In this document: one piece after another, positions 1 through 14,289 of the stretch | Layout: each line of letters begins with the position of its first letter | How positions within the stretch are numbered: the first letter of the stretch is position 1 | NCBI RefSeq assembly: GCF_001632365.1 | Contig: NW_024468535.1 | Location: forward strand, 465,157-479,445 | From: Laetiporus sulphureus 93-53 | Lineage: Eukaryota > Basidiomycota > Agaricomycetes > Polyporales > Laetiporaceae | Direction of reading: 5' to 3' | Length of the DNA stretch: 14,289 bases | Program-made: the position numbers and the translations under genes | Notes under the pieces: model-generated | Told to the model about the DNA's origin: nothing | Databases searched by the model: none | The model's input: the letters and a program-made list of their open reading frames with translations, nothing else

Positions 1-118
1 CTGACTATTGGAGACGTTAGGTATATTTGGTATCTAAGTCTCTATCCACGTTGTGGACTAGTACGTGTGAGAAGGCACACGTGGTTCTGAACGTTCTAGC
101 AGGAAACACTTCATAACA
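1..118 (+). repeat. 3' end (U5) of the 5' LTR of element A
   Basis: These 118 bases align without gaps to 3965-4082. By eye there are seven differences, all transitions. The LTR ends in CA at 118, followed by TT and then the primer site, the spacing expected if integrase trims two bases. The rest of this LTR lies left of the window. Confidence 0.9.
63..82 (+). other. U5 stem-loop (U5-IR analogue)
   Basis: ACGTGTG (63-69) and CACACGT (76-82) form a perfect 7-bp stem around AGAAGG. In the 3' LTR copy (4027-4046) one C has become T, which leaves a G-T wobble and keeps the stem. Tf1 of fission yeast needs an inverted-repeat stem-loop in U5, near the primer site, for self-priming. The position here, about 40 nt upstream of the primer site, fits that role. 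The function is inferred. Confidence 0.5.
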
Positions 119-120
119 TT

Positions 121-131
121 TGGAAGAGGTT
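121..131 (+). other. Primer-binding site of element A, self-priming type
   Basis: TGGAAGAGGTT lies two bases after the LTR end. It begins with TGG, as tRNA-type sites do, but it is the exact reverse complement of AACCTCTTCCA at 3728-3738 in the 3' LTR. That site is 33 nt downstream of a TATA box, where the RNA should begin. Tf1 uses the first 11 nt of its own mRNA as primer in this way. I could not match the site to the 3' end of a tRNA I know. Confidence 0.75.
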
Positions 132-143
132 TTTCTATAGGTC

Positions 144-508
144 AACCTGTTTAGGTTTAGAACCACTTACCAGAAGTGGGGTCTACTTGGATGCTACAGG
201 AAAATCAAGACCTGTGTGGTCGCTTCCAGGACCTGTGTGGTTACCTTGGTACGACAAGGAAGGGGAACCTGTGTGGTCACCAACAAACCTGTGTGGTTCA
301 ATCAAATCTGTGTGTTTATCAAACTCAAGCACTAGCAGTTACCTGTGTGGTAATCCAGAAGAGAAGCCCTCAACTGAGGCACATGTAGAAGACATGCTAA
401 AGCCCTTCCCAGGGAAGGCAATTCAGAATCAAGAAGATTCAAGGAACTAGCGATAGTCTGTGTGACTATCCAGAAGAACTCGGCGTGAAAACACGGACCC
501 GTGTGGTC
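144..508 (+). other. Leader hairpin array with TGTGT loops
   Basis: The untranslated leader between primer site and gag ATG carries a repeated 13-17 nt motif that folds as a small hairpin with a TGTGT loop. Copies are at 209-221 (GACC/GGTC stem), 230-242, 267-277, 286-298 (AACC/GGTT), 305-317 (degenerate), 338-354 (GTTACC/GGTAAT), 452-470 (GATAGTC/GACTATC) and 496-508 (loop CGTGT). The last two strong stems share little with the first, yet still pair. Related or extra hairpins lie at 144-157 (AACC/GGTT), 163-179 (CCACTT/AAGTGG) and about 403-418. The arrangement suggests an RNA signal, for example for packaging by Gag; the role is inference. Confidence 0.6.
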
Positions 509-546
509 AATGAACAATTGGTTAAGGGCCACCAAGAAAAGGCAAG

Positions 547-3321
547 ATGTCGTATCACGAAAACAAAGGATACGAATCAGACTCCGGAGATGAGCCGATA
601 GGCTATCAAGGAGACAAAGGATACATGACGCCGTTGTCATGGAACGATGCAACCAATGAAGAGTTAGATTGGTTCAAAGACGTCAGGAATACGTGAGCCA
701 TTGCGCTGCAAAGACGACAAAGGTTGGGGAACCTTACAACCCCAGAAGAGCAGCATCAGCTTTGAGAGCTCGAACATGACGTTGAAGAAATTCGACGGGT
801 AATCAATAATAGGAAGGACATTGCAAAGGATTTCGAGGACAAATTCCTAACGCATATGGATCTTCCTAGAGGAAAAGCGATACAAGTCAATCCAAGGCCA
901 GAGGATGCCGAAGGATCAAACAAGGATAAAGGACGGGAGGAATGGAATCCTCTCAGCATCAATCCAAGTTTATTAAGGAGTGGCAACTCTAGCATTACGC
1001 CAACATCCAGGAAGCCCTACGATGGGTTAGGATTATGGAAAGGAGTCAGGACGACACCTTTAACCAGGACATCCTCAGAAGGAGGAAGGCCAGTAATGCC
1101 ACTCGAAGTACCAAAAAGGTCACAATCAGCCATGGCACAAACAAGTAGTTTGGGAACTACTATTCAAAATCCCATCAAAGCATGGTACGATCCAGCCAAT
1201 GGACCACCAGTGCATCCAGGACTGACATGTCTGAAATTCCAGTGGCAGGAATATCTCCTGGAAATGAATCTATACGTGCTGTATAATTCTGCACAACCAG
1301 AATTGGAAAAGGAGGAATTACAGCTAGGGGAGATCTGACCATTCACAGGAGATAAGCGAACATTTACATCACTCCTCCAAGCTGGAGAGCGACATCTCCA
1401 GGCAAACATCCACATATATGATAACGACTACAGTCAGATAACATTCATCCTATCCCACTTCGAACCTGGTTCAGCAGCAGCAAAATGGGTCGAATCATGG
1501 GAAGCAGCGATGATCGCATCTACAGGAAGATCAGATGATCTAGGACTTTATCGCGACTTTCGGATGACTCTCCAAGAAAAGTATGGAGGAGTCGCAACCA
1601 AGGATCAAGCATGGCAAACGTTACTCGACAATCAGTGTAGGCAGAAGAAAGGAAAGGTCGACAATTACATCAGGAATCTCGATATCCTATTTTGCTATGC
1701 TGAAATCGATGATGACTATACCAAGCTCATTCATTTCAAGTGAGGCTTAGAATCGAAGTTGGCAGAAAAAGTCTTCCTTATCCCTAATCCTCCAACAACG
1801 TATGAGGATGCTTGCGACCTTGCGAGACAAGTCAACGACCTTCAAAATGCCCATAAGGGAAAAAGCAATATCTTCGATTTCATCACACATGCGAATCAGG
1901 GTGATTCAATGAATGAAGGAGATTCGATGGATGTAGATGATCCCAATGCAATGGACATCGACAGGGCATGACAAATACGACAAGTACGGAACCTTCCAGT
2001 TAAAATATGCCTGTGCTACCGATGCAGAAAACCAGGGCACGAGATGGATCAATGCCCCGCAAAGAAGCCAAACATCGATAGGACCCTGCAAAACATGCAA
2101 CCCGTATAAATTGTCAAATTAACAAAGAAGCAGAAGGCTTCTTCAATTAAGAGAAAAATTGCATACGCGTCTACTGGATCAAAAGAACCCTCAAAAGATC
2201 TGTCAATCACGAAGAAGATGCGGAAGCAGATTGAGCAGCTGGTAACTAAGTTGGTTAATGAAAAACTCGTTAACCTTCTTCTCGGAGCCGGCGGTCAAAA
2301 CCACCATGTCGATCGAAAGGAAAAGGAAGACGAAGAAGATAATGACGAACCTATGGATATCGATCGAATGTCTGAACATATTCTTGGCATGAACACCATT
2401 CAAATTGGTGCCATACGTACTCATTCATCGCATAAAGACCAGACAGCCTTCCCTACATCAATATGGAAGGAAGTACTTATGGCATCACTCGATATCAGTC
2501 AAAAAGAATGGCATGGTATCAAGGCCATTGTCCAAAGAAAATTTGACAAGAGGTGACAAGGAGATGACGATGAAAGTACTTCATCATCTACATCTTCCTC
2601 TTCAGCAAACAGCATGTCCAACCAACGTATGAAGACATGTCCTAACCGGAAGGGCGAAAAGAAGAAGACAAAGCAGCAGCAGTCGACTAAGTCAGGCCAG
2701 CAGTCTTCACCTTCCATTAACCAATGGATCAATCAGCCATTTAAGGGGACTCGTGAAGATTCTCGCCATTCACAACCGGGACAAGGACAGTTCTCTGATC
2801 GATGCTGGAACTGCAATCGTATCGGACATCGTGAATTTGAATGCCCAAAGCCGCATCGGATGGAGGCTACTTCTGAAAACAGTAACAAATCAAGGTCGCG
2901 ACCGCTGCGACAGCACGAATGATGGAATGCAGGACAATTACCCGATTCGTTATCACCCAAGCATTTCAAGGCAGCCTATGCATGAAACTCCAGTATTGAT
3001 TCCTCGAATCCAAGTACTGGCAGCAATGCGAAGCAAGGAACTCCTCTGAGTCCCTCAAACCTGCACGTGCATCACAGTGGACGTACCGTCGAGTTGTTTA
3101 ACAGTGATTCTGAATCATCAAGCACCAATCAGACTTCTTGGGCTGATCAAGTCGAAAAGAGATACCCGTCTCTGGGCAACCCTACACCAGAACAGTCAAG
3201 CATCGGCACAAATGATGAATCCTCTGCTGAATCACATGACAGCTCCACGCATACTATTTCAAGAATACTTCCTTCCTCAAAGCGGAAGCGCAGATGGAGA
3301 AGATGGGATCTTATGGTTTAA
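547..3321 (+). pseudogene. gag: gag polyprotein of element A, nonsense-riddled
   Basis: One frame of 925 codons starts at ATG 547 (residues MSYHENKGYE) and ends at TAA 3319. It holds nine premature stops and no frameshift: TGA at 694, 763, 1336, 1741, 1969, 2554, 2920 and 2983, and TAA at 2107. Codons about 265-428 form a retrotransposon Gag capsid-type domain, from PFTGDKRTF to the stretch after LIPNPPTTYEDACDLA. Where related Gags usually have RGL, this copy has stop-G-L at 1741, so the lost codon was probably CGA. Two CCHC zinc knuckles follow, at codons 490-503 and 753-766, each downstream of an acidic stretch containing MDIDR. The tail is rich in Ser, Asn and acidic residues and ends in a basic cluster. 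Gag would coat the element RNA in a cytoplasmic particle. This copy is dead. In the last 60 codons another frame stays open towards the LTR, so a late frameshift is possible. Confidence 0.85.
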
Positions 3322-3343
3322 TTGCCAAGAGGTCTTGGCAGTT

Positions 3344-3354
3344 GGAGAGGGAAG
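3344..3354 (+). other. Polypurine tract of element A
   Basis: GGAGAGGGAAG is an 11-base purine run, 22 nt after the gag stop and 4 nt before the proposed LTR start. This is the expected site for plus-strand priming. The gap of four bases is slightly long, so the exact LTR edge remains uncertain. Confidence 0.55.
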
Positions 3355-3445
3355 CTTGTGTTACGAAACATACCGTCGCTCATGGTCACGTAATCCCCAT
3401 GAACAAGCACCTAGAAGAGACGCCCAATCACGGTCAGGTGATATC

Positions 3446-3501
3446 AGTCACTATGTGACTGAGGACAGCTTCTAGTCACTATGTGACCGAGGACAGCTTC
3501 T
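3446..3501 (+). repeat. 28-bp tandem repeat with palindromic core in U3
   Basis: Two head-to-tail 28-bp copies (3446-3473, 3474-3501) differ at one base. Each contains GTCAC-TAT-GTGAC; in the first copy the arms extend to an 8-bp perfect palindrome, TCAGTCAC/GTGACTGA (3444-3462). The position, about 200-250 bp upstream of the TATA box, suggests a duplicated upstream activating site for a dimeric protein. Confidence 0.65.
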
Positions 3502-3694
3502 AGGGTTCTTAAACTCTAACCCCAGGATCTGCGATCCAGGACTTTGGTTCTCATTTCATATTTCAGGTATTTCACCTACGCTTTTCTTAGCTCGCCAATT
3601 ACCTGGCTCACAGCAGCTAAGCTCCGGTGTGTTTCACCTATCTTTAGGATAACGGAACCCCTTGTACTAGTACCCCAGACTATAGGTCTGCAAC

Positions 3695-3738
3695 TATATA
3701 AAGGGGCAGAGCAGCAGTGGGAAGACTAACCTCTTCCA
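3695..3738 (+). promoter_or_regulatory. TATA box and predicted RNA start / self-primer of element A
   Basis: TATATAAAG is at 3695-3703. AACCTCTTCCA at 3728-3738 is perfectly complementary to the primer site at 121-131. The 33-nt distance from TATA to 3728 matches a normal RNA polymerase II start, so R should begin at or close to 3728. Confidence 0.7.
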
Positions 3739-4082
3739 CCTGTGACTCTGAACGTTCTCAGTTCTAGAACCCTCGTGCAATCGTACTCGCTCTCAAGAGG
3801 TAGTAAGCTCGTACACTTGCTAGAGTCAGAACAGCGAACCTAGTAACCTGCGGGTGAACATGCAGTAGCTGTAGCGGCCAAGGCCTAGCAAGGGTAGAGT
3901 GAGGACCTCACTGCTACATCGTCTACTAGGCTTGACCACACTATAAACCCTGCTAATAGTCTGCCTGACTATTAGAGACATTAGATATATTTGGCATCTA
4001 AGTCTCTGTCCACGTTGTGGACTAGTACGTGTGAGAAGGCATACGTGGTTCTGAACGTTCTAGCAGGAAACGCTTCATAACA

Positions 4083-5928
4083 TTTTGCCGCAGATCTCCT
4101 TCAAATGCTGCTGTGCATCCTTGTCTGGGTTGAGGGTCCTGTAGTTTACTTTGAGAATGTCGACGAAGTCTAACCAAGTACCGAGTGATTGCTGTGCCAC
4201 TGCCCTGGTTGCGTATTCTGACATGTAGGTGAATGCGCCACCTTCCAAGTGCAGCAGGGCTGTGGTAATCTTGTGCTCATCGTCATTGATCTCATTTCAC
4301 CACATCCATATTCCGAGTTGTTGGAGCCAGTCCTTCAGACTTCATTTGCCCGAGTAGTGTGGAGGTTCAGCAATTTTGATGCGGAGTTTGTAACCTTGAC
4401 CGGATGTGTGACCTTGCGTCATTGCGATGCCACTTGCTTTTAGTGAAGCTAACTCATGGCATAACTTGATATTTTCTGCACCGAGTTCCATCAATTTTTT
4501 TCCCATGTCTAGCATGGCTCCCTGTGTGCCTGTGATCTCATCGTTGAGAACCGTCATGTGCGCATCTTGCGCTTGAATTTTGTTGTTAAGCCTTCCGATT
4601 TCTGTTTGGAGGACTGCCTCCTTCAATCGGTGCTCGCTTCAGTTCGACTGAATTATCACGTTGAAGGCTCTCTTGTGCTCGTACATTTTGTTTCCAAGCA
4701 TGTTCTAAACCTTTTTGACTCCGGTGTTGACCGTGAGCTTCATGGCGACTATGACCCATTCTTGGATATGATCCAGGACTTCACCGAGAGTGGATTGCCT
4801 GAGTGCATCTTCTAGATGCTGAAATTGCTGTCCATCAAACTCCCAAATGAGAGGGACGTAGGTGGGTAAAAGTGATGGTGTCGAAGATTTGGGTCCTCCG
4901 ACTTGTGATGCAGAGTCCTGGGATCCTAGTCCAGGCTCAGGTGAATTGCGTTGCAAGGCACGTGAGGTACTTCTGTCATGTGTCTCAATGTTAGAATGGA
5001 GTACATCCTTCATTGGTTGTCTGAATGTAGACATGTGGGGATGGGAAGGTTCGGCCATTGTGCAGTGTAACTAGTACAAAAAATTCAAGTATCTCTTCTT
5101 TGAGATCTCAAATAGTGTCCTGACTATCCTGTCTAGTGTCTCCTGTTTCCCAATCCGTTGAAAGCTGATTCTGCCTATCTTCAAGCAGACCATGTTGATA
5201 ATTTGTTTCTCGATGAATGTGTATTTGCAAGCTCTCGTGTAAAGGTCTGCGCAGACCTTGTCTAGTTCTGACAATAGGCACTGTAGTCCTTTGCCTCTCA
5301 AATTCTCATCGAGGCATTCCCAGAAGGCTCCTAATAAGGGTTGGAGCCTGAAGTGAGTGGCGAATACTTGCTTCTTGAGGGTTTCAAGGTGAAGTGTGGG
5401 CCTGACTCTCGATGGAAGTGGACAGATTGGTCGTGCATGTGTGCTGACTTTGATAAAGTTGGGGAGTGGTTGCATGGGCTGTGGAGTGATAATGACTGGG
5501 GGGATAGCATTGGAGGTGATAAGTTCTGGCGGTGGTGCCAGCTTGTGACTACCGGTGGTGAGGTGTCCTCTTCTGGGCTTGTAGCATTCGAGCGAAGGGG
5601 TGTGACTATGAGGCCAGTGAATGATTCTGCACTGTATGATGTGTGTGGTGTCAACTACCCTGGCTGCTGTGCATTGCTGGTCTGTGGAGGATGCACCTAG
5701 AAATGCTAAAGTGAGGAGCCTTTCTCACTCCTTGTTGGTTTCCTGACACTTATAGTGGACGTTGAGGTCAATCCTAGGGAGGGCCTTGCACTTTGGAGCT
5801 TTGGGCTGCTCAGTGTCTTGCTGAGGCTCACACCTGGTAGAGATTGGATTGGAATGTGTGTCAAAAAAGCCATGCACTATGGCTGAAACTGCTTGCACTG
5901 AAAATACATGGCCACTTGTGCTAGACAC
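4083..5928 (-). pseudogene. gag: gag of element B, truncated and with nonsense mutations
   Basis: On the minus strand one frame runs from ATG 5928, 23 nt after the primer site, to the insertion point at 4083. It has six stops and no frameshift: TGA 5727, TAG 5073, TAG 4707, TGA 4641, TGA 4344, TGA 4299. The first 286 codons are Pro/Ser/Thr-rich, then basic and helical; I do not recognise this part. After TAG 5073 the same frame continues to MAEPSHPHM at 5058. Codons after 4626 look like a coiled coil (LNNKIQAQDAH to the region near 4420). The capsid-like domain follows (KIAEPPHYSGK, then DWLQQLGIW and TTALLHLEGGAFTYMSEYA). The stop at 4299 falls in the W-W-N stretch and fits TGG to TGA. Either the true Gag starts at 5928 and TAG 5073 is a mutation, or Gag starts at 5058 after a separate upstream frame ending 12 nt before it. 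Confidence 0.75.
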
Positions 5929-5965: not shown

Positions 5966-6666
5966 TGTCACAGCACCACTGGACAAGAGATCAAAAAGAC
6001 TATAAAAGGAAATGGTCACGTGGAACATGCCGCCCTGATTCCCCTGATCCCTTATGTGGCTTGAGAGCCTAACACTTACTTGTTGGTGAAGCAAGCGTAT
6101 GGAAGGGTGAAAGATATATGGTGGAGCTGGTAGGCTCAGTGGGTGCTACAGTGGTAGACGAGGAGAAACAATCTGAAGTTTTGTCCTCTACATGGCTGGT
6201 CTTATATACATGTACAGGAGCCTGATTACATAACCTTCATCATACCACTACTACAAAATAGATGATTGGCTATCTACGTATCTAGGTGACTAAACTATAT
6301 ATGGAACAATAAGTGGGAAGATCTATCCTAAACTAGAATAATAGGTGAGAAGATCGGTCTTCATCCATAACAATGGTGAGATGATCCATCCTATCGTGGT
6401 AACAGCCATACCTTGAGCTGATTGCCTAGACAATCCTAAACAATAGTCCTTGTTCCCTTTGTTTCTAAATGGATGCCTCTATTGCATCCTGGAATAGACA
6501 GGTCCGATAGTATTATCTGCAGGTCTGGGCCATAACATGTGATATGGACTATCACCTGATCTCTATGTGTCACGTCTGTGGCTAAGTAGCGTGAGATATT
6601 GGTGAAGCATGTGATCTGTGGCATGAGAAAAGTCACATGCAGACATTGTGGCAAAAATCTGTGACA
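5966..6666 (-). repeat. 5' LTR of element B, 701 bp
   Basis: The edges are TGTCACAG and CTGTGACA, a perfect 8-bp inverted repeat. The sequence matches the copies at 7648-8366 and 12988-13710 over its length. In minus orientation it carries a TATA box at 6208-6202, a predicted RNA start at 6176, and a hairpin at 6017-6029 that in the other two copies is a perfect CACGT/ACGTG stem, in the position of a U5 inverted repeat. It differs most from the other two copies. Confidence 0.88.
6164..6208 (-). promoter_or_regulatory. TATA box and self-primer sequence of element B
   Basis: On the minus strand TATATAA begins at 6208, and TCAGATTGTTTCT starts at 6176, 32 nt downstream. The 13 nt match the primer site by complementarity and are unchanged in the other two LTR copies (7864-7876 and 13206-13218). 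U3 would be about 490 nt and R-U5 about 210 nt. Confidence 0.65.
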
Positions 6667-7084
6667 AATAGCTTTAGTGTCCCAGCGGCGTGCAAAACTG
6701 AAGGTTAGGATGAGATCAAAGCATAGGATGTTGAATCCCATGGTCACGATGTAAGCTCGGTCCTCATGGCTTTCATACAATTGCTGCCAAGCTGTAGCCG
6801 AGCAAGGATTAGGCAGCAATTCTGCATGGCACAGGTATCCTCAATTAGCCTGATGGTGGTCTATTCATTGCTGTCGATCTTCAGAGGTCCCAGTATATAG
6901 CAAGGTGACGATGAGGATTTGATCTCTCTCCAACTGAGCTTCATCTTCCTCTTCCTGTTCTGCCTCATGGGTGACACTGAGATGACCAAGGACATTTTTC
7001 ATTAAAGATTGTGAAGCCACGAAATGATACAGGGCAAAAGCATGTCTGTCAAGTGCAAGTGCCACAACAGGTTCAAAGTCCGCA
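6667..7084 (-). pseudogene. PIF/Harbinger-like transposase, 5' fragment (left palindrome arm)
   Basis: The minus strand encodes the same N-terminal residues as the right copy: VALALDRHAFALYHFVASQS, then an acidic run EAEQEEEDEA, LERDQILIVTLLYTG and, after two in-frame stops (in the stretches DRQQ-stop-ID and QAN-stop-GY), LLPNPCSATAWQQLYESHED and YIVTMGF. It ends at RRWDTKAI, where the LTR of element B begins. No start codon is evident; the residues may follow a splice acceptor. It lacks the catalytic domain in this window, and the remainder may lie beyond element B. Confidence 0.7.
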
Positions 7085-7500
7085 CTACAATATAAAAATA
7101 TTCTAATGCAACGCTACGGTGTGAGCTATTCTATCAAGTGCCTTCTGGATATGATTTGACACTCAGCTTTATAATCTGAAATGTGTTCTAAACCTGCAGG
7201 ATGGCATCCAATATGTTGGAGGCAGAAATTTAAAATCATATATTTTAAGAAATGACACCATTTTCAAACTCACCAGATACATTTAGAATTTGAGTGCTGT
7301 TGAATGTAATCATACATTTTTGAATTTCAAACTATGACATGTATAAAATATCTAGTAGCAGATGAAGGTGTAATTAAATGCCATCCTGCAGGTTTAGACT
7401 GCATTTCAGATTATAAAGTGGAGTTACAAATCATATCCAGAAGGCACTTGATAGAATGGCTCACACTGTAGCATTGCATTAGTACATTTTTATATTGTAG

Positions 7501-9661
7501 CGCGGACTTTGAACCTGTTGTGGTGCTCGCACTTGACAGACATGCTTTTGCCCTGTATCATTTCGTGGCTTCACAATCTTTAATGGAAAACATCCTTGGT
7601 CATCGCAGTGTCACCCATGAGGCAGAACAGGAAGAGGAAGATGAAGCTGTCACAGTAACACCGGACAAGAGATCAAAAAGACTAAAAGGGATAGTCACGT
7701 GGAACGTGCCACCCTGATCCCTCTGATCCCAAAGTATCTCCCTGAACCCTATGTGGTGCAAGAGCCTGTTTGACTTACTGGTTGATGTGGTGAATGCAGA
7801 AAAGGGTAAGAGATATATGGAAAAGCTGGTGAGCTTAGTAGATGCTACGGGTAGTAGACGAGGAGAAACAATCTGACGTTTCGTCCTCTACATGGCTGGT
7901 CTTATATACACGTACAGCGGGCTATCTTACCTAAGCTACCTATCTACGGGTATAAGCTAATGGCCGTACATGAAACAATAGGATGTCCGGAAGTAGAACA
8001 ATAAGTGGGAAGATCGATGGTTGCTGCAGTAATGCGTGTGCACATCATGCCTATCTTGGTTCCCCTTTTGTTCTCTGGTGTGAACATCGTGCCTATCTAG
8101 GCTTCTGGCTAAACTAATAGGAAGCGGAAGGCCGATGCATAACAATAGTCCTTGTTCCCTTTGTTTCCAAATGGGTGCCTCTATTGTATCCTAATAGACA
8201 GGTCCGACCGTATCATCCGTGGGTCTGGACCATAACATGTGATGTGGACTATCACCTGATCTCTACGTGTCACGTCTGTGGCTGAGTGGCATGAGATATT
8301 GGTGAAGCACGTGATCTGTGGCATGAGAAAAGTCACGTGTGGACTTTGTGGCAAAAATCCGTGACAGAAGCTCAGGTGGAGAGAAATCAAATCCTCATCA
8401 CCACCTTGCTATATACTGGGGGCCTCTGAAGATTGACAGCAACAAATAGACCACCATCAGGCCAATTGAGGATACCTGTGCAGTGCAGAATTGCTGCCTA
8501 ATCCTTGCTCAGCTACAGCTTGGCAGCAATTGTATGAAAGCCACGAGGACCGAGCTTACATCGTGACCATGGGATTCTACATCCTATGCTTTGATCTCAT
8601 CCTAACCTCCAGTTTTGCATGCCGCTGGGACACTAGAGCTATTGTAAGGAGAGATGTTGCTGAGAAGGGAACGGCATGCCCAGATCAACGCTCGCTTGAT
8701 GCTGCTGGAGGTCTAGCCTCATCCTCCATTACCTCTGCTCTACAATGCACGAAATCTCCCTTCAGCAGATCTTTGCCCTCATTCCTGCCACAGTCTCGAG
8801 ATATACCAACTTCACGCTGAAGATACTCCTGGAGACTCTTCGAGACATGCCATCTGGCCAAATTAAATGGTCGCAGGGCTTCGAATTCGAATAATACACA
8901 CATTTAATCTCTGCACACCATAGCCTGCTTGACAGAGCATTTGGCTCTCTTGATGGCCTCAATCTTCCATGCCAGACATCAGATGACTTGGAAATTGAGA
9001 ACGCAACTTACAATGGGTGGTTGCATGAGCATTTTATTAGCTCTGTGTTGGCATTCACACTGAAAGGTATGCTATTCCTGTCTATCTGCAGTAAGCGAGC
9101 CTGATCTTACCTGACACAGGCACGATTATGGCTGCCAAGCTGAACTGCCCAGGCAGCTGGCATGATTCTCGTGTAGCACGTCCTATCTATGAGAAGCTTT
9201 ACACCAAGACTCCAGATGGATACTTTCTTGTTGCAGATACAGCATTCCCTCATGGGTCAGACCAAATTGCAGGCCGCATTCGTGCTTCTATCAAAGCTGG
9301 ACAGCAATTACTGTCATCGGTTACTGAGCGTACTCATGCTCTTCAGATCAACCGGCAGCTCCTTTCATATTGACAGACTGCCGAATGGGTAATGCATGGA
9401 CTTCATAGTTCCTTTGGCCGCCTTTGAGTCCCACTCGAGATTGACCATGATGAGCAACGAGGTGATCTCCTTGAAACTTGTGTACGCCTTAACAATGTTC
9501 ATGCCAACATCATTGGAATCAATCAGATCAACACTGTCTATGCATCAATATAGAGGGAAGGGGATCAGGCACAAATTTGGGATGGTTTTGCAGGTATGCT
9601 ATTTGCGGAGCAGAGGTGCAGAGACCAGGTCAAAGCATTTCATATTGTAGCAGACTCGTGA
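7501..9661 (+). pseudogene. PIF/Harbinger-like DDE transposase (DDE_Tnp_4 type), degraded
   Basis: Coding similarity starts near 7501, after a possible splice acceptor (tatattgtag), is split by the solo LTR, and resumes to 9661. Segments are VLALDRHAFALYHFV; LPNPCSATAWQQLYESHED (8494 on); SLDAAGGL; a one-base deletion near 8716; then ISLQQIFALIPATVSRY, FGSLDGLNLPCQTSDDLE, GSWHDSRVARPIYEKL, FLVADTAFPHG and TAEWVMHGLHSSFGRL. Probable catalytic residues are Asp at 8952 (SLDG), Asp at 9236 (VADTAF) and Glu at 9383 (AEW). A GT-AG intron of 53 bp lies at 9067-9119, within LKG|T. Premature stops are TAA 8892, TGA 9371, TGA 9425 and TAG 9551. The enzyme would cut and rejoin the transposon ends in the nucleus. 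A convergent MYB-like gene ends 50 bp downstream. Family assignment is by recognised sequence patterns only. Confidence 0.85.
7648..8366 (-). mobile_element. Solo LTR of the B/C family, 719 bp
   Basis: It begins TGTCACAGTAAC, ends GTGACA, and is flanked on both sides by gaagc (7643-7647 and 8367-8371), a perfect 5-bp target duplication. No internal sequence is present, so the element was lost by recombination between its LTRs. It interrupts the transposase pseudogene in its acidic stretch (EEEDEA then QVERNQ). The self-primer sequence (7864-7876), TATA box (7902-7908 region) and U5 hairpin (7696-7708) are kept. An imperfect direct repeat with 42-bp spacing (acatc-tgcctatct at 8042 and 8084) lies in U3. 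Confidence 0.93.
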
Positions 9662-9711
9662 ACTTATGCAAACATTTTAGAAAATTTATTTCGATGTCAT
9701 TGTTTACTATT

Positions 9712-11986
9712 TTACTGTGACAGAGGGCTAGGAGCCCAGTCTGATGGAGTTTGAGGCTGTGAGTTCGCTTCACTTGCATTTTCGTCATCATTGGGATTCA
9801 TCACCAAGGCCTGAGGGTGCGACGGAGAGATCTCAAACAAAAGGTCACCAATGCGGCTGCAGTGAGGTGTGATGGAGACTTCGATACCTCCAATGTTGAG
9901 TGCTGCTGGTGTAGCATGTGATGCCTCATGAGAAGACTGTAAAGAATGCACTTGTGCATTCATCTCTCGAGTTCCTGCTGCTCTGCCAAAGCTGCCTTCT
10001 GGCTATCGAGGAGAGCTGGGAGTGTGCGGAGACCCATCATGATGTTGGCGAGCATGACAAAAGGGAGAGTGTACAGGTGGATGGTTGCCACGTGTAGTGA
10101 GTGAGCTTGCTGAATGCATGTGATGATCTGAATACCGCACTAGATCTGGTCATCTAGAAGGTGTGTCAGGGATTCTTTCAAATGTACAAGGACGATCAGG
10201 GTTGATGAGATCGTCAACTTCATCAGGGAATGCCCAGAATGTTGCGCGAGCTCCATCAGCATAGCAGACGTTATAGCGGTCACAGTGAGGGGAAGGCTCG
10301 AGGGTTTGACGAGGCAAGGGCTCAAGGGCATGGCGATGATGATGAGAGGCCGATATTGGATGATGGTGAGGTGAGGAATCTAGTGCATAATTTGAATGAT
10401 GGGAGATTGATGTGCGACGAGAGCGGCGATATGGATAAAGGTGGCTCCGAGATGAGCTACAGCTGCAATTGCGAGAGTGAGACCTGCTTCGTCTACCAGA
10501 ATCATGGAGCATGCGTGATATTTCCATTTGATGTTCTGCATGATCAGCATGCTGCTGTGCATCCTGATAGCGATGCTCAGCCTCCATGAGCTGTGTACGA
10601 AGGTTAGTAACCATAGTGTTGAGATCACGAATGTGTTGATTCAATGCTAGAACTTGAGTAGTATGAAGTGATTGTGCGGCCCTATCACTATCATGCATGG
10701 CTTGCACTGTAGGGTCCAGGGAATGAGAAAGGCATGTAAGAACCTCCATGCCAGCATTGACGTTAGGAGCATGCGATCGACGAGCACGCTCAGCATGAAC
10801 TGCGGCAGGAGGTAGCTTGGGGTCAATTTTGATGGCATGAGCTGTAACAGTTGGCTCATTTTGAGATCATCTATTGTTCTTCTCATCATCACTAACAGAA
10901 AGAATGGAATGGTCAGCATCTTGCTCCGTGGCAATTTCGTCATCATCAAGATCATGAGAGTGAACTTTATCGTTGATAAGGTCGTCGATGTAATGCACCC
11001 GCTCAACAGCTGGAGGACAGTCTGCATCACTGATAGGCTTGCTGGTTTGTACCAGCTAAAGGACTGTTAGTGATAGGAAATGAGATGTTATCACAAATCA
11101 ACGCTCACCTGCTTAAACTTTGCCTTCAGTGACTTGTCTGTTCACTCGGGTCTGCTGTAAACATATGCCCAATCTTGATGCTGCTTGTCTACCACCGTCC
11201 AGCCGTTGGCACCAACAGGTAGCTCATCTTCAACAAGGTCGAGAAGTTCACTGATATCATCATCGCGATAGTTGGCTGCACCTCGAATGCGATCTGGGCC
11301 CTTTTTGGTAGGAGCTTTCATATCGCCATCTCTGTCACTGTCGCCACTACCATCGTCTCAGATCTGCTTGTGCTTACATGTTCGGACAGGCTCTGGCTCA
11401 CACATGTGCTGTTTTCCCTTGGCCTTCGAGCAACCACGAGAGACTGTGTGATGAGATCCTCCAGTCTTGTCCACCAGTGAGTGACAGTGATGAAGCTCTA
11501 AAATCTCCAACGTATGCTGGGGCGGGAGAGGCACCAGCATTGGATCGATTGCACTGGATGGCAGCTGTGGTGGGCCAGCAACAGCACTGGTGGGAGCCTT
11601 GCATCATTCATGAGGATAATCTGGGTCAGAAGAGCAGTACAAAAACACTTACATATGATGGATGAAGGACAGTAGGTGGTGGACCATACTGCAAAGACAT
11701 AGCACGCGCTTGAGATCCTTCACCAGCATGGTATGGTGGTCCATCGTTCAGGCTGCCAGACAGCCCAGGCATGATTTGATGGTTCATGAGCAAATTTGAG
11801 ACATTGCAGGATGATGGGAATACATACCTGCAGAGGTGCCAGCTGGGATGCACCAGATGGTCCATAAGGTAGCCATCGGCCATCCACTCCAGTGGTCCAA
11901 GCCTGTCCATCAGGTGATACCCAGAACTTTGCATTGTCTCCACCAGATGGAGTGCTGTCAGCAAAGCTGTGCAGTGGCTGAGACAT
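9712..11986 (-). pseudogene. MYB/SANT-like (DUF6818-type) transposon companion gene, multi-exon, degraded
   Basis: The minus strand starts at ATG 11986 (MSQPLHSFADSTPSGG, then KFWVSPDGQAW and GRWLPYGPSG). Likely exons are 11986-11828, 11752-11653, 11620-11109 and 11055-10150, with a weaker tail to 9712. The 53-bp intron 11056-11108 has GT-AG ends. The recognisable domain spans about 11290-10990: GAANYRDDDISELLDLVEDE, LPVGANGWTVV, KSLKAKFKQ, then CPPAVERVHYIDDLIND. It resembles a MYB/SANT-like DNA-binding domain that I recall as Pfam DUF6818. Next comes a coiled coil (NQHIRDLNTMVTNLRTQL), an Arg/Ser-rich and a His-rich stretch. TGA interrupts at 11360, 11144, 10869 and 10152, and the frame across the first introns is off by a base. 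PIF/Harbinger elements use a MYB-like partner to bring the transposase to DNA ends; that role is inferred here. Confidence 0.7.
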
Positions 11987-12554
11987 GCTTATTTTGATGA
12001 GAGCTTCGCAGAATGGTTGAGAAGAACGTTGAAGATCAGAACAAAGATGCTTCACTACTGTCACAGTATTAAGTGGCACCTTTCTTTTTGCACCAATAAA
12101 GTCATCATTCAGCAATCACAAGTGGTTATTCGGACGCCAACCTTCATATTGGTCTCACAAAGTGGATACTTAGACAAACAGCACAATACCACCACATACA
12201 TCGCGGATATGACTGTGTCTACCACATGATCACCAAGTGCCCATGATTCAGCCACCCAGTCACGTGACACTGCCCACTTGCCCTATTCGGAAGTTATCAG
12301 GCGTTGATCACGTGACACCAGGCCACTTGCCCAGAATGGAACTCTTTGGCCCACAATAGGCTTACCTGTGCTCATTGGACCATCAAGCTAGCAAGCACCC
12401 AATTCGCTGCTTAATAGCAGCAACAACTACATGGCTGCCAAATAGTAGCACCAGCATTAGAATATGCGCTATGGCAGAACCTCCATTGGGCACTCAATAA
12501 GTGGCACCACTTCAGTCACTCAAATAGTGGCACCACCTTCAGGCAATTATCTCA
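11987..12554. promoter_or_regulatory. Upstream region of the MYB-like gene with E-box doublet and GTGGCACC repeats
   Basis: I see no gene here. TCACGTGA, a perfect E-box palindrome of the type bound by bHLH proteins, occurs at 12260-12267 and 12308-12315. Each is followed by a GACAC stretch and CCACTTGCCC, so a unit of about 48 bp was duplicated. GTGGCACCAC occurs at 12501-12510 and 12527-12536 (26-bp spacing), with variants at 12073-12080 (GTGGCACC) and 12445-12454. These may be subterminal repeats of the two-gene transposon or promoter elements. I could not find a convincing terminal inverted repeat. Confidence 0.4.
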
Positions 12555-12987
12555 TTGGGTAAAGTAGGATTACCTTGGTGTATCCACGGCCTTTATAGAT
12601 AGTTGCTATAGCGAAGTCCAGAACCATTACTGGTTTTGGCAATATGTTCACATGTAGACAGGACAGGACCCCAATAAGTACACCATAGTTAGGGTACCCA
12701 GGGTCCACCACTACATGTATATAAGCACATGAGGATCTAAGGGAAGACCTTAGATTCATTCAACTATTGTATGCGGCCAGCAGGCCAGCTCCCCCCTTTC
12801 ACCTTTTGTGCAAGGCCATGCATTGGGGCTTTGCCTTGATTGCTGGTTATATGCCACTGCGCGCCATCCTCAGCCTAGCCCTTGTGGCAGGCTTTTATGT
12901 TGTGGATTTATTTGTGCAGGTCACACAAGCAGACTTGCCCTTAATTGGGTTAAGTGTTTTGTGCTTTGTGACAACTACGGAGGCATG
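12555..12987. other. Unassigned stretch with TATA box and hairpin
   Basis: No convincing gene. TATATAAG at 12718-12725 is followed by a perfect 8-bp stem, ATCTAAGG/CCTTAGAT (12735-12755), at the distance where a transcript would start. This looks like a promoter, perhaps of a decayed LTR, but I found no LTR edges. An open frame after 12767 encodes hydrophobic residues and then runs into the LTR at 12988; I take it as chance. gcatg at 12983-12987 should be the target duplication of element C. Confidence 0.35.
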
Positions 12988-13710
12988 TGTCACGGTAACA
13001 CCGGACAAGAGATCAAAGAGACTAAAAAGGGACAGTCACGTGGAACGTGCCGCCCTGATCCCCCTGATCCCAAAGGTATCCCCCTGAACCCTATGTGGCG
13101 CAAGAGCCTGTTGACTTACTGGTCAATGTTGGCAGACGCAGGAAAGGGTGAGAGATATATGAAGGAGCTGGTAAGCTCAGTGAGTGCTATAGGTAGTAGA
13201 CGAGGAGAAACAATCTGAGGTTTCGTCCCCTACATGGCTGGTCTTATATACACGTACAGCGGGCTATCTTACCTAAGCTACCTATCTACGGGTATAAGCA
13301 AATGGCTGTACATGAAACAATAGGATGTCCGGAAGTAGAACAATAAGTGAGAAGATCGATGGTTGCCGCAGTAATGCGTGTGCACATCGTGCCTATCTTG
13401 GTTCTCCTTTTGTTCTCCGACGTGAACATCGTACCTATCTAGGCTTCTGGCTAAACTAATAGGAAGCGGAAGGCCGACGCATAACAATAGTCCTTGTTCC
13501 CTTTGTTCCCAAATGGGTGCCTCTATTGTATCCTGGAATAGACAGGTCCGACCGTATCATCCACGGGTCTGGACCATAACATGTGATGTGGGCTATCACC
13601 TGATCTCTACGCGTCACGTCTGTGACTGAGTGGCGTGAGATATTGGTGAAGCACGTGATCTGTGGTGTGAGAAAAGTCACGTGCGGACTTTGTGGTGAAA
13701 AACTGTGACA
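12988..13710 (-). repeat. 3' LTR of element C, 723 bp
   Basis: The edges are TGTCAC on the left and GTGACA on the right. It aligns over its length with the solo LTR at 7648-8366, and less closely with 5966-6666. The self-primer sequence (13206-13218), the TATA box (near 13244-13250, minus orientation) and a perfect CACGT/ACGTG hairpin (13037-13049) are kept. The right edge is fixed by the adjacent polypurine tract. Confidence 0.9.
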
Positions 13711-13728: not shown

Positions 13729-14289
13729 TCATTGTCCCGAGGAGCCAAAACCTTTATTACCCCTTCTAGTTGCTCGCAACGGTTGGTAGCTTCGGGAGGG
13801 AAGCCCTTCTGCATAATACTCAAAGATTATTTGGGCTATTCTATCTCCCGGCTTGACCGAAAATACGAAATCCGTTGTGTTGATTAGTACGACCTTGAGT
13901 TCCCCAGTGTAATCTGGATCGACGACTCCTGCGCCCACGTCAATTCCTCGTGCAGCCAGTCCGCTGCGTGGAGCTATTCGTGTATAGGTATGTTTGGGAG
14001 GGTCAATCGCGACTCCCGTCCCTACCACAGCTCGTGAATGCGAGGGGATTTCATGCGTTTCTGCTGCATAAATATCCCATCCTGCTGCTTCATTTGAGGA
14101 TTTTTTCGGTGATTTGGCGAGATCTGTCATCTTATGATATAGGAAGAACTCGTCTGGATGGTCGGACATATTGATTCGGTGTGTGGAGATCGGTGCAACT
14201 TCATATGAGGATAATTCGAAGTGTTTTCCACCAAAAGTGACGACCCTGATTGGTGCTTTGGCTGCATCTGGGTGTTGCTGGTGGAATTC
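13729..14289 (-). CDS. dUTPase domain at the C-terminus of a retrotransposon polyprotein (5' end outside window)
   Basis: dUTPase hydrolyses dUTP to dUMP and pyrophosphate, keeping uracil out of new DNA. The frame is open from the window edge (14289) to TGA at 13731-13729, 186 codons, so ATG 14169 is probably internal. Counting from that Met, all five trimeric dUTPase motifs are present: I AGWDIYA (29-35), II PRSGLA (67-72), III GVVDPDYTGE (81-90, catalytic Asp 84 and Tyr 87), IV GDRIAQII (108-115), V RGNKGFGSSG (136-145). The 146 residues match the usual size of the single domain. The 40 codons upstream (EFHQQHPDAAKAPIRVVTF, then FELSSYEV) could be the end of integrase or a linker. The stop lies right before the polypurine tract, so the domain closes the element's coding region. 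A host gene is unlikely given this position. Confidence 0.9.
   Translation of the reverse strand, partial: EFHQQHPDAAKAPIRVVTFGGKHFELSSYEVAPISTHRINMSDHPDEFFLYHKMTDLAKSPKKSSNEAAGWDIYAAETHEIPSHSRAVVGTGVAIDPPKHTYTRIAPRSGLAARGIDVGAGVVDPDYTGELKVVLINTTDFVFSVKPGDRIAQIIFEYYAEGLPSRSYQPLRATRRGNKGFGSSGQ

What the first reader, a model, noticed from the sequence alone, without database searches (positions are those of the whole stretch)
144..508. Array of small hairpins with a conserved TGTGT loop in the leader of a gag-only retrotransposon
About eight copies of a short motif lie between primer site and gag ATG, at loop starts 213, 234, 270, 290, 309, 344, 459 and 500, several about 20 or 36 nt apart. 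The loop is constant but the stems differ: GACC/GGTC, AACC/GGTT, GTTACC/GGTAAT, GATAGTC/GACTATC. Both sides of the stem change together, which is what selection on RNA pairing would leave. It looks like a repeated protein-binding RNA signal, such as a packaging signal read by the two-knuckle Gag, or a translation or localisation element. I know of no described array of this form, but could not search.
Basis: partly seen in the sequence, partly recalled or inferred. Interest (0 to 1): 0.8.

Follow-up and report, generated by a model that had tools for sequence, protein, structure and literature searches.

The report
Retrotransposon leader with repeated GUG-loop hairpins
The start of the RNA of a gag-only jumping element in a wood-rotting fungus carries a row of small hairpins whose stems change in matching pairs while the loop letters GUG stay fixed, which looks like a multi-site docking signal, perhaps for the element's own packaging protein.

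Summary
The array is real. All eight loops are where stated: seven TGTGT, one CGTGT; six have stems of 4 bp or more. None of 2000 dinucleotide shuffles matched it. Protein names point to Laetiporus sulphureus 93-53. In 71 unique TGTGT instances from related leaders, arms pair with their own partner better than with swapped ones (0 of 20000 permutations; window alone P 0.019). In the leader core, 6 of 22 pairs carry two-sided changes against 0.76 expected (0 of 1000). Within loops only G-U-G is fixed: 0 of 12 columns vary, against 6 of 8 for loop positions 1 and 5. The element is gag-only, and its Gag has an added tail with a second zinc knuckle. Tail matches (19) fall in array-bearing families plus one orphan gag, none at F3 or F4 relatives, some of which have integrase downstream. 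I favour a multivalent Gag-binding packaging signal; function is untested. Against: no single pair was significant in an all-pairs ranking, the whole leader is not unusually stable, and some hairpins fold no better than shuffles.

The parts
1..118 (+). 3' end of the 5' LTR (the LTR begins upstream of the window)
   Evidence: 1-121 is 94% identical to 3965-4085; LTR ends CTTCATAACA at 118 and 4082; full LTR about 735 nt in a sister copy
119..135 (+). presumed primer binding site region directly after the LTR
   Evidence: position only; primer tRNA not sought
145..156 (+). hairpin P1, ACCT/AGGT
   Evidence: 59 of 60 cells paired in 15 copies
163..179 (+). hairpin P2, CCACTT/AAGTGG
209..221 (+). 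H1, GACC-UGUGU-GGUC
   Evidence: closing pair C-G in 12 of 14 F1 copies, T-A (two-sided change) in L008, C.A in L012; the F1b row is misaligned here
230..242 (+). H2, GACC-UGUGU-GGUU
244..259 (+). hairpin H2b, CCUUG/CAAGG
   Evidence: T-A, C-G and A-T at one pair, G-C and A-T at another, also broken pairs (some rows may be misaligned)
267..277 (+). H3, ACC-UGUGU-GGU (3 bp)
286..298 (+). H4, AACC-UGUGU-GGUU
303..322 (+). H5, motif UGUGU at 309 without a stable stem in this copy
   Evidence: 0 kcal/mol; 4 bp in copy L013, and in L006 with a 6-nt loop
338..354 (+). H6, GUUACC-UGUGU-GGUAAU; the only array hairpin with a counterpart in family F3
   Evidence: 171 of 175 cells paired in 25 sequences of F1, F1b, F2 and F3, counting a seventh pair at 337-355; T-A to A-T in two
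368..379 (+). core hairpin Ha, CCUC/GAGG
   Evidence: 105 of 108 cells paired
382..396 (+). core hairpin Hb, CAUGU/ACAUG
   Evidence: three of five pairs with two-sided changes, 9 of 135 cells broken
404..418 (+). core hairpin Hc, CCUUCC/GGAAGG
   Evidence: two of six pairs with two-sided changes, 8 of 162 cells broken
426..440 (+). hairpin Hd, GAAUC/GAUUC
   Evidence: G-C to A-T in 2 of 15 rows
452..470 (+). H7, GAUAGUC-UGUGU-GACUAUC
   Evidence: G-T, A-T and G-C at one pair; loop NGUGN in 14 of 14
496..508 (+). H8, GACC-CGUGU-GGUC
   Evidence: loop NGUGN in 14 of 14 while loop position 1 takes all four letters; closing pair broken (C.A) in 5 of 14
547..2922 (+). gag, disabled in this copy by in-frame stops
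   Evidence: 5 TGA over residues 1-498; 1 TGA and 1 TAA in the tail
2014..2055 (+). first CCHC knuckle of Gag
   Evidence: my reading; same knuckle at 486-501 of P0001
2803..2844 (+). second CCHC knuckle of Gag, in the added tail
   Evidence: my reading
3359..4082 (+). 3' LTR (TGTTA...TAACA), TATA-like word at 3695
3953..3975 (+). LTR hairpin CUAAUAGUC-UGCCU-GACUAUUAG; the loop is UGUGU in copies L005 and L013

Best explanation
The leader of this gag-only Ty3-like element is a structured RNA: a row of short hairpins presenting the same GUG in a 5-nt (sometimes 6-nt) loop, next to a core of three hairpins shared with related families. Shown here: the hairpins, their paired changes, the fixed GUG, the gag-only anatomy, the extra Gag tail with a second knuckle, and that the tail is found only in array-bearing families. 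Inferred: the zinc knuckles of the element's own Gag hold the loop guanines, several Gag molecules dock side by side, and this marks the RNA for packaging into Gag particles, where reverse transcriptase and integrase are supplied by family F3, whose LTR is about 90% identical.
For: Pairing is specific to the partner arm: mean stem 3.23 versus 2.24 bp when 3' arms are swapped, 0 of 20000 permutations (71 unique of 100 TGTGT instances); window leader alone P 0.019, F2 leader alone P 0.017, n 7 each. Core and H6, 27 sequences: 6 of 22 pairs carry two-sided changes, null mean 0.76, 0 of 1000; slid versions 0 or 1. GUG columns of four slots: 0 of 12 variable; loop positions 1 and 5: 6 of 8; rest of leader 100 of 320. 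NGUGN in 88 of 89 aligned loops, the exception being a misaligned row. The seven exact CTGTGTG words of the leader are all on the transcript strand, between LTR and gag. Tail: 19 matches, in the 14 F1 copies, F2 (two copies), F1b, F1c and one orphan gag on C8, none at F3 or F4 positions. LTR 87.6 to 90.9% identical to six F3 copies over at least 500 nt. In HIV-1 SL2 the two NC knuckles hold the two G of a loop G-U-G (PMC7599994, passages), and NC prefers unpaired guanines (PMC7601788, passages).
Against: No binding or packaging data. F3, with integrase about 5 kb downstream in 4 of 10 copies, has one such hairpin and keeps GUG in 6 of 9, so the array is not needed by every relative. L010, L012 and L014, open over the first 487 to 498 gag codons, have only 2 or 3 hairpins of 4 bp or more. 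Whole-leader energy is ordinary (z -0.04); H2, H3, H5 and H8 fold no better than many shuffles; closing-pair probabilities run from 0 to 1. An all-pairs ranking gave no significant pair (best E 5.5). In F1b and F1c the tail match stops before the second knuckle (residues 193 and 197 of 295, knuckle at 264-277), so that knuckle is shown only for F1, F2 and the C8 gag. From the passages read: replacing the GGAG loop of the HIV-1 psi hairpin barely affected packaging, MoMuLV NC did not bind its isolated hairpins well (PMC7599994), and Ty3 packaging needs both UTRs and POL (PMC11381356). Tail and array probably arose once each, so their co-occurrence is weak evidence.
Confidence: 0.5

Rival explanations
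1. Host RNA-binding protein sites: the GUG loops recruit a host protein that controls translation, decay or location of the RNA.
For: Fixed loop and paired stems fit any loop-reading protein; the array lies in a 5' leader with four ATGs between 130 and 546.
Against: The array is found in the families with the altered Gag and not in F3 or F4; weak, as both traits may date from one event.
Confidence: 0.27
2. Translation or dimerisation element: the string of hairpins shapes the leader for internal initiation, for slowing scanning, or for pairing of two RNAs.
For: Ty3 RNA dimerises in vitro through a short palindrome near its 5' end (PMC11381356, passages); core hairpin Hc is nearly palindromic.
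Against: The loop UGUGU is not self-complementary, and fixed loop letters are not needed for a scanning block (inference).
Confidence: 0.15
3. Simple DNA tandem repeat or leftover of template switching without RNA selection.
For: Units are gained and lost between copies at the CTGTGTGG word; a tandem repeat finder reports part of it (266-322).
Against: Partner-specific pairing, compensatory changes, fixed GUG beside variable neighbours.
Confidence: 0.05
4. Double-stranded DNA sites for a protein that binds inverted half-sites.
For: Hairpin arms are inverted repeats.
Against: Arms vary while the asymmetric spacer is fixed, all in one orientation. In the F1 slots 44 cells are G.U against 14 A.C (pair positions 12 against 9), which keeps pairing on the transcript strand; but core Ha, Hb and Hc show 0 v 3, 5 v 7 and 0 v 6.
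Confidence: 0.03

Closest known systems
Retroviral packaging hairpins with guanine-bearing loops read by NC knuckles (HIV-1 SL2 and psi hairpin; PMC7599994, passages)
   Same: Short hairpins in the RNA leader, loop guanines spaced by one base, CCHC knuckles in Gag
   Different: Here one loop is repeated up to about eight times on changing stems; fungal gag-only element; the two knuckles lie about 240 residues apart; binding not measured
Ty3 of Saccharomyces cerevisiae (PMC4974528 and PMC11381356, passages)
   Same: Gag with CCHC knuckle; needed RNA sequences lie at the RNA ends, nt 429 to 4979 being dispensable for transposition with proteins in trans
   Different: Ty3 Gag3 has one knuckle; its packaging sequences are called not precisely defined, with both UTRs and POL needed; no such hairpin array in the passages I saw
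TR-GAG elements of plants (search listing; that they have gag and no pol is recalled)
   Same: LTR element with gag and no pol
   Different: Fungal host; added Gag tail with second knuckle; I saw no mention of a hairpin array in the listing
Multi-site packaging signals dispersed in RNA virus genomes (PMC8472981, passage)
   Same: Many similar sites proposed to cooperate in binding coat protein
   Different: Here clustered in about 300 nt of leader

Membership tests
Ty3-like LTR retrotransposon | paired LTRs with TG...CA ends | tested here: met
   TGTTA...TAACA, about 735 nt; the two LTRs of one sister copy (L008 and L061) are 98.6% identical
Ty3-like LTR retrotransposon | Gag of Ty3 type | tested here: inconclusive
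   Retrotrans_gag E 0.0002 and Ty3_capsid E 0.003, both under the curated cut-off; knuckles of P0001 also under cut-off
gag-only (TR-GAG-like) element | open gag frame and no pol between the LTRs | tested here: met
   798-codon gag frame in the copy L008/L061, ending at L061:948, with the 3' LTR from about L061:1406, so about 460 nt remain. An overlapping 280-codon frame (L061:680-1522) was not searched for domains.
retroviral-type packaging signal | structured leader RNA between primer site and gag | tested here: met
   by pairing statistics only
retroviral-type packaging signal | loop guanines kept in evolution | tested here: met
   less so in F3, 6 of 9
retroviral-type packaging signal | binds Gag or NC and directs packaging | not testable with these tools
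   needs biochemistry
known Rfam RNA family | match at the gathering score | tested here: not met
   window 1-700: best 19.7 bits against 81 needed
simple tandem repeat | copies differ without regard to pairing | tested here: not met

The most novel reading that the evidence does not exclude
A parasitic gag-only element has built a private packaging channel: it added a second zinc knuckle to its Gag and multiplied one ancestral GUG-loop hairpin (H6, still single in F3) into an array, so that its own Gag picks its own RNA while enzymes come from the relative. This would be a matched protein and RNA innovation visible in one genome.
Probability: 0.2. Interest if true: 0.8.

Novelty: new variant of a known kind. 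Interest (0 to 1): 0.6.

Why it matters
Packaging sequences of Ty3 are called not precisely defined even in yeast (passage in PMC11381356). A leader with many natural variants of one hairpin, a fixed GUG and changing stems gives ready-made material for testing what a Gag reads, and suggests how a non-autonomous element might secure packaging of its own RNA.

Tried and rejected
Whole-leader folding energy as evidence: z -0.04, so not used. An all-pairs G-test with a tree-preserving null on the core alignment gave no significant pair; that alignment still held a non-homologous tail, and I then tested named pairs only. Rfam: nothing near a gathering score. DNA-site and simple-repeat readings: see rivals. 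Search of the own genome for two motifs 8 to 38 nt apart: 71 hits against 7 for the reversed pattern; by my count 52 of 71 lie in the array leaders of F1, F1b and F2 and 19 elsewhere, mostly singly. Ten paper searches listed nothing whose title or abstract start describes such an array; that covers only the open-licence library. I opened four papers by passages (searches are five look-ups of five papers: PMC4974528, PMC11381356, PMC7601788, PMC8472981, PMC7599994) and read none in full.

Rows dropped: of 43 leader matches 30 became loci; 15 were used as leaders with arrays (L001-L015) and 10 as F3 (L016-L019, L021-L025, L029). L020, L027 and L030 repeat elements already held; L028 is a short piece. 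One search left out the four F4 leaders and readings preceded by TG, and used exact TGTGT only. One search used 27 of 31 leaders: three have no recognisable core (F3_L029, F4_C24, F1c) and F4_C1 was dropped because its core breaks off. Slots H2 to H4 are aligned partly by the loop word itself, so one search used only H1, H6, H7 and H8 in the 14 F1 copies.

Full report
What is there. The window lies in a 38.6 Mb, 124-contig genome. All eight Gag relatives returned are named from Laetiporus sulphureus 93-53, and three lie on contigs of 690557, 506282 and 1646637 bases, the lengths of C13, C24 and C2 here. Positions 1-118 are the end of a 5' LTR, 3359-4082 the 3' LTR, and gag starts at 547. Seven loops are TGTGT and one is CGTGT; stems from the loop outwards are 4, 4, 3, 4, 1, 6, 7 and 4 bp. 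TGTGT is the most repeated hairpin loop in the leader, with 5 hairpins of 4 bp or more; 0 of 2000 dinucleotide shuffles reached that. The same test gave 0 of 2000 for the leaders of F2 and F1b.

Relatives. The leader has 43 matches in the genome. My labels: F1, the 14 gag-only copies like the window (L001-L014); F1b, a divergent copy (L015); F1c, a decayed copy on C111; F2, a copy on C7 with its own array (L026); F3, ten copies with a different leader middle; F4, four further copies. Comparing positions by eye, which scored 150 of 238 integrase candidates, an integrase lies about 5 kb downstream on the same strand for 4 of 10 F3 copies (C94 twice, C12, C25) and 1 of 4 F4 copies (C1).

Pairing. 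Swapping 3' arms among the 71 unique TGTGT instances lowers mean stem length from 3.23 to 2.24 bp and the number of stems of 4 bp or more from 35 to 15.8; none of 20000 permutations reached the observed value. The window alone (n 7) gives P 0.019 and F2 alone (n 7) P 0.017. Related copies are not independent, so the single-leader values are the cautious ones. On the core (H6, Ha, Hb, Hc) of 27 sequences, 556 of 580 cells pair; 6 of 22 pairs show two-sided changes against a mean of 0.76 in a null that keeps tree and substitution numbers (0 of 1000); cells with two-sided changes reach P 0.012; sliding the partner by 1 to 3 columns gives 0 or 1 such pairs. Examples: closing pair of H1 C-G to T-A in L008; H6 T-A to A-T; Hb and Hc C-G to T-A. 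Against: an all-pairs ranking gave nothing significant; A.C cells are commoner than G.U in Ha, Hb and Hc; the closing pair of H8 is C.A in 5 of 14 copies.

Loop. Of 89 aligned loops of F1 and F1b, 88 read NGUGN, the exception being the misaligned F1b row of H1. Exact UGUGU is rarer: 1 of 14 in H8, 7 of 14 in H7. In four securely aligned slots of the 14 F1 copies the GUG columns never vary (0 of 12) while loop positions 1 and 5 do (6 of 8); against the rest of the leader (100 of 320) Fisher P is 0.021. In F3 the counterpart of H6 keeps GUG in 6 of 9 copies. Part of the variation at loop position 1 is C/T before G, the CpG type.

Turnover. Seven unit deletions that I picked from the alignment end at the CTGTGTGG word; six of the seven fused hairpins have 4 bp or more with a 5- or 6-nt loop, one has 3. 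L009 has a further deletion that I did not count. NGUGN hairpins with 4 bp or more number 2 to 7 per F1 leader.

Gag. An annotated F1-type Gag (P0001, 780 aa) has knuckles at 486-501 and about 744-760. Two Gag relatives (P0006, P0007; family not checked) match it at 50% and 43% up to the first knuckle and a little beyond, not over the rest of the tail. The tail has 19 matches in the genome: the 14 F1 copies, two on C7 (F2), F1b, F1c and a gag copy on C8; none lies at an F3 or F4 position. In F1b and F1c the match ends before the second knuckle, so that knuckle is shown only for F1, F2 and C8. Arrays occur in F1, F1b and F2, with a remnant in F1c, and not in F3 or F4. The residue after the first cysteine is Tyr in knuckle 1 and Trp in knuckle 2.

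Mechanism. In HIV-1 SL2 the two knuckles hold the two guanines of a loop G-U-G (PMC7599994, passages), and NC prefers unpaired guanines (PMC7601788, passages). The same chemistry would explain why GUG is fixed, why stems may change as long as they pair, and why several copies help. The two F1 knuckles are about 240 residues apart, so one knuckle per guanine of the same loop is not assured. The same review reports that replacing the HIV-1 psi GGAG loop had no significant effect on packaging and that MoMuLV NC did not bind isolated hairpins well, which warns against reading loops alone.

Odds. On checking I lowered the packaging reading from 0.55 to 0.5, because I had left out these two contrary results, and the novel case from 0.25 to 0.2, because the second knuckle is not shown in F1b, which has an array. 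Host-protein reading 0.27.

Novelty. Hairpin-loop packaging signals and gag-only elements are known; a clustered array of one GUG loop on changing stems in a fungal LTR element is not described in anything my ten searches showed me. New variant of a known kind.

Noticed in passing
window 3953-3975 (3' LTR) and L005, L013: A hairpin in the LTR, CTAATAGTC/GACTATTAG, has loop TGCCT in most copies where the search word was found but TGTGT in L005 and L013, and its inner stem TAGTC/GACTA is that of H7, so the two may be related.
   Followed up: partly
G000:C8:130139-131893: A gag copy with tail, 94% and 88% identical to the query pieces, is reported inside an open frame of 6470 codons; masked letters could be the reason. 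Not read.
   Followed up: no
gag copies across the genome: In-frame stops in decayed gag copies are mostly TGA (for example 5 TGA in the window copy), as C-to-T change at CGA would give.
   Followed up: no
window 5966-13710: Another repeated element is present in three pieces (near 6439, 8139 and 13483) with long inverted repeats (6937-7212 with 7373-7648, and 6667-6891 with 8419-8643), suggesting nested or inverted insertions.
   Followed up: no
window 13729-14169, minus strand: Likely host gene for dUTPase (Pfam E 1.7e-35).
   Followed up: no
L062 and L065 (two of four F4 leaders): A repeat 78 nt apart holds GGGTACACTGYGTGGTACTGG, in which GTAC/GTAC could enclose a UGUGU-like loop.
   Followed up: no
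window 3446-3501: Two tandem 28-nt copies of AGTCACTATGTGACYGAGGACAGCTTCT in the LTR, upstream of the TATA-like word.
   Followed up: no
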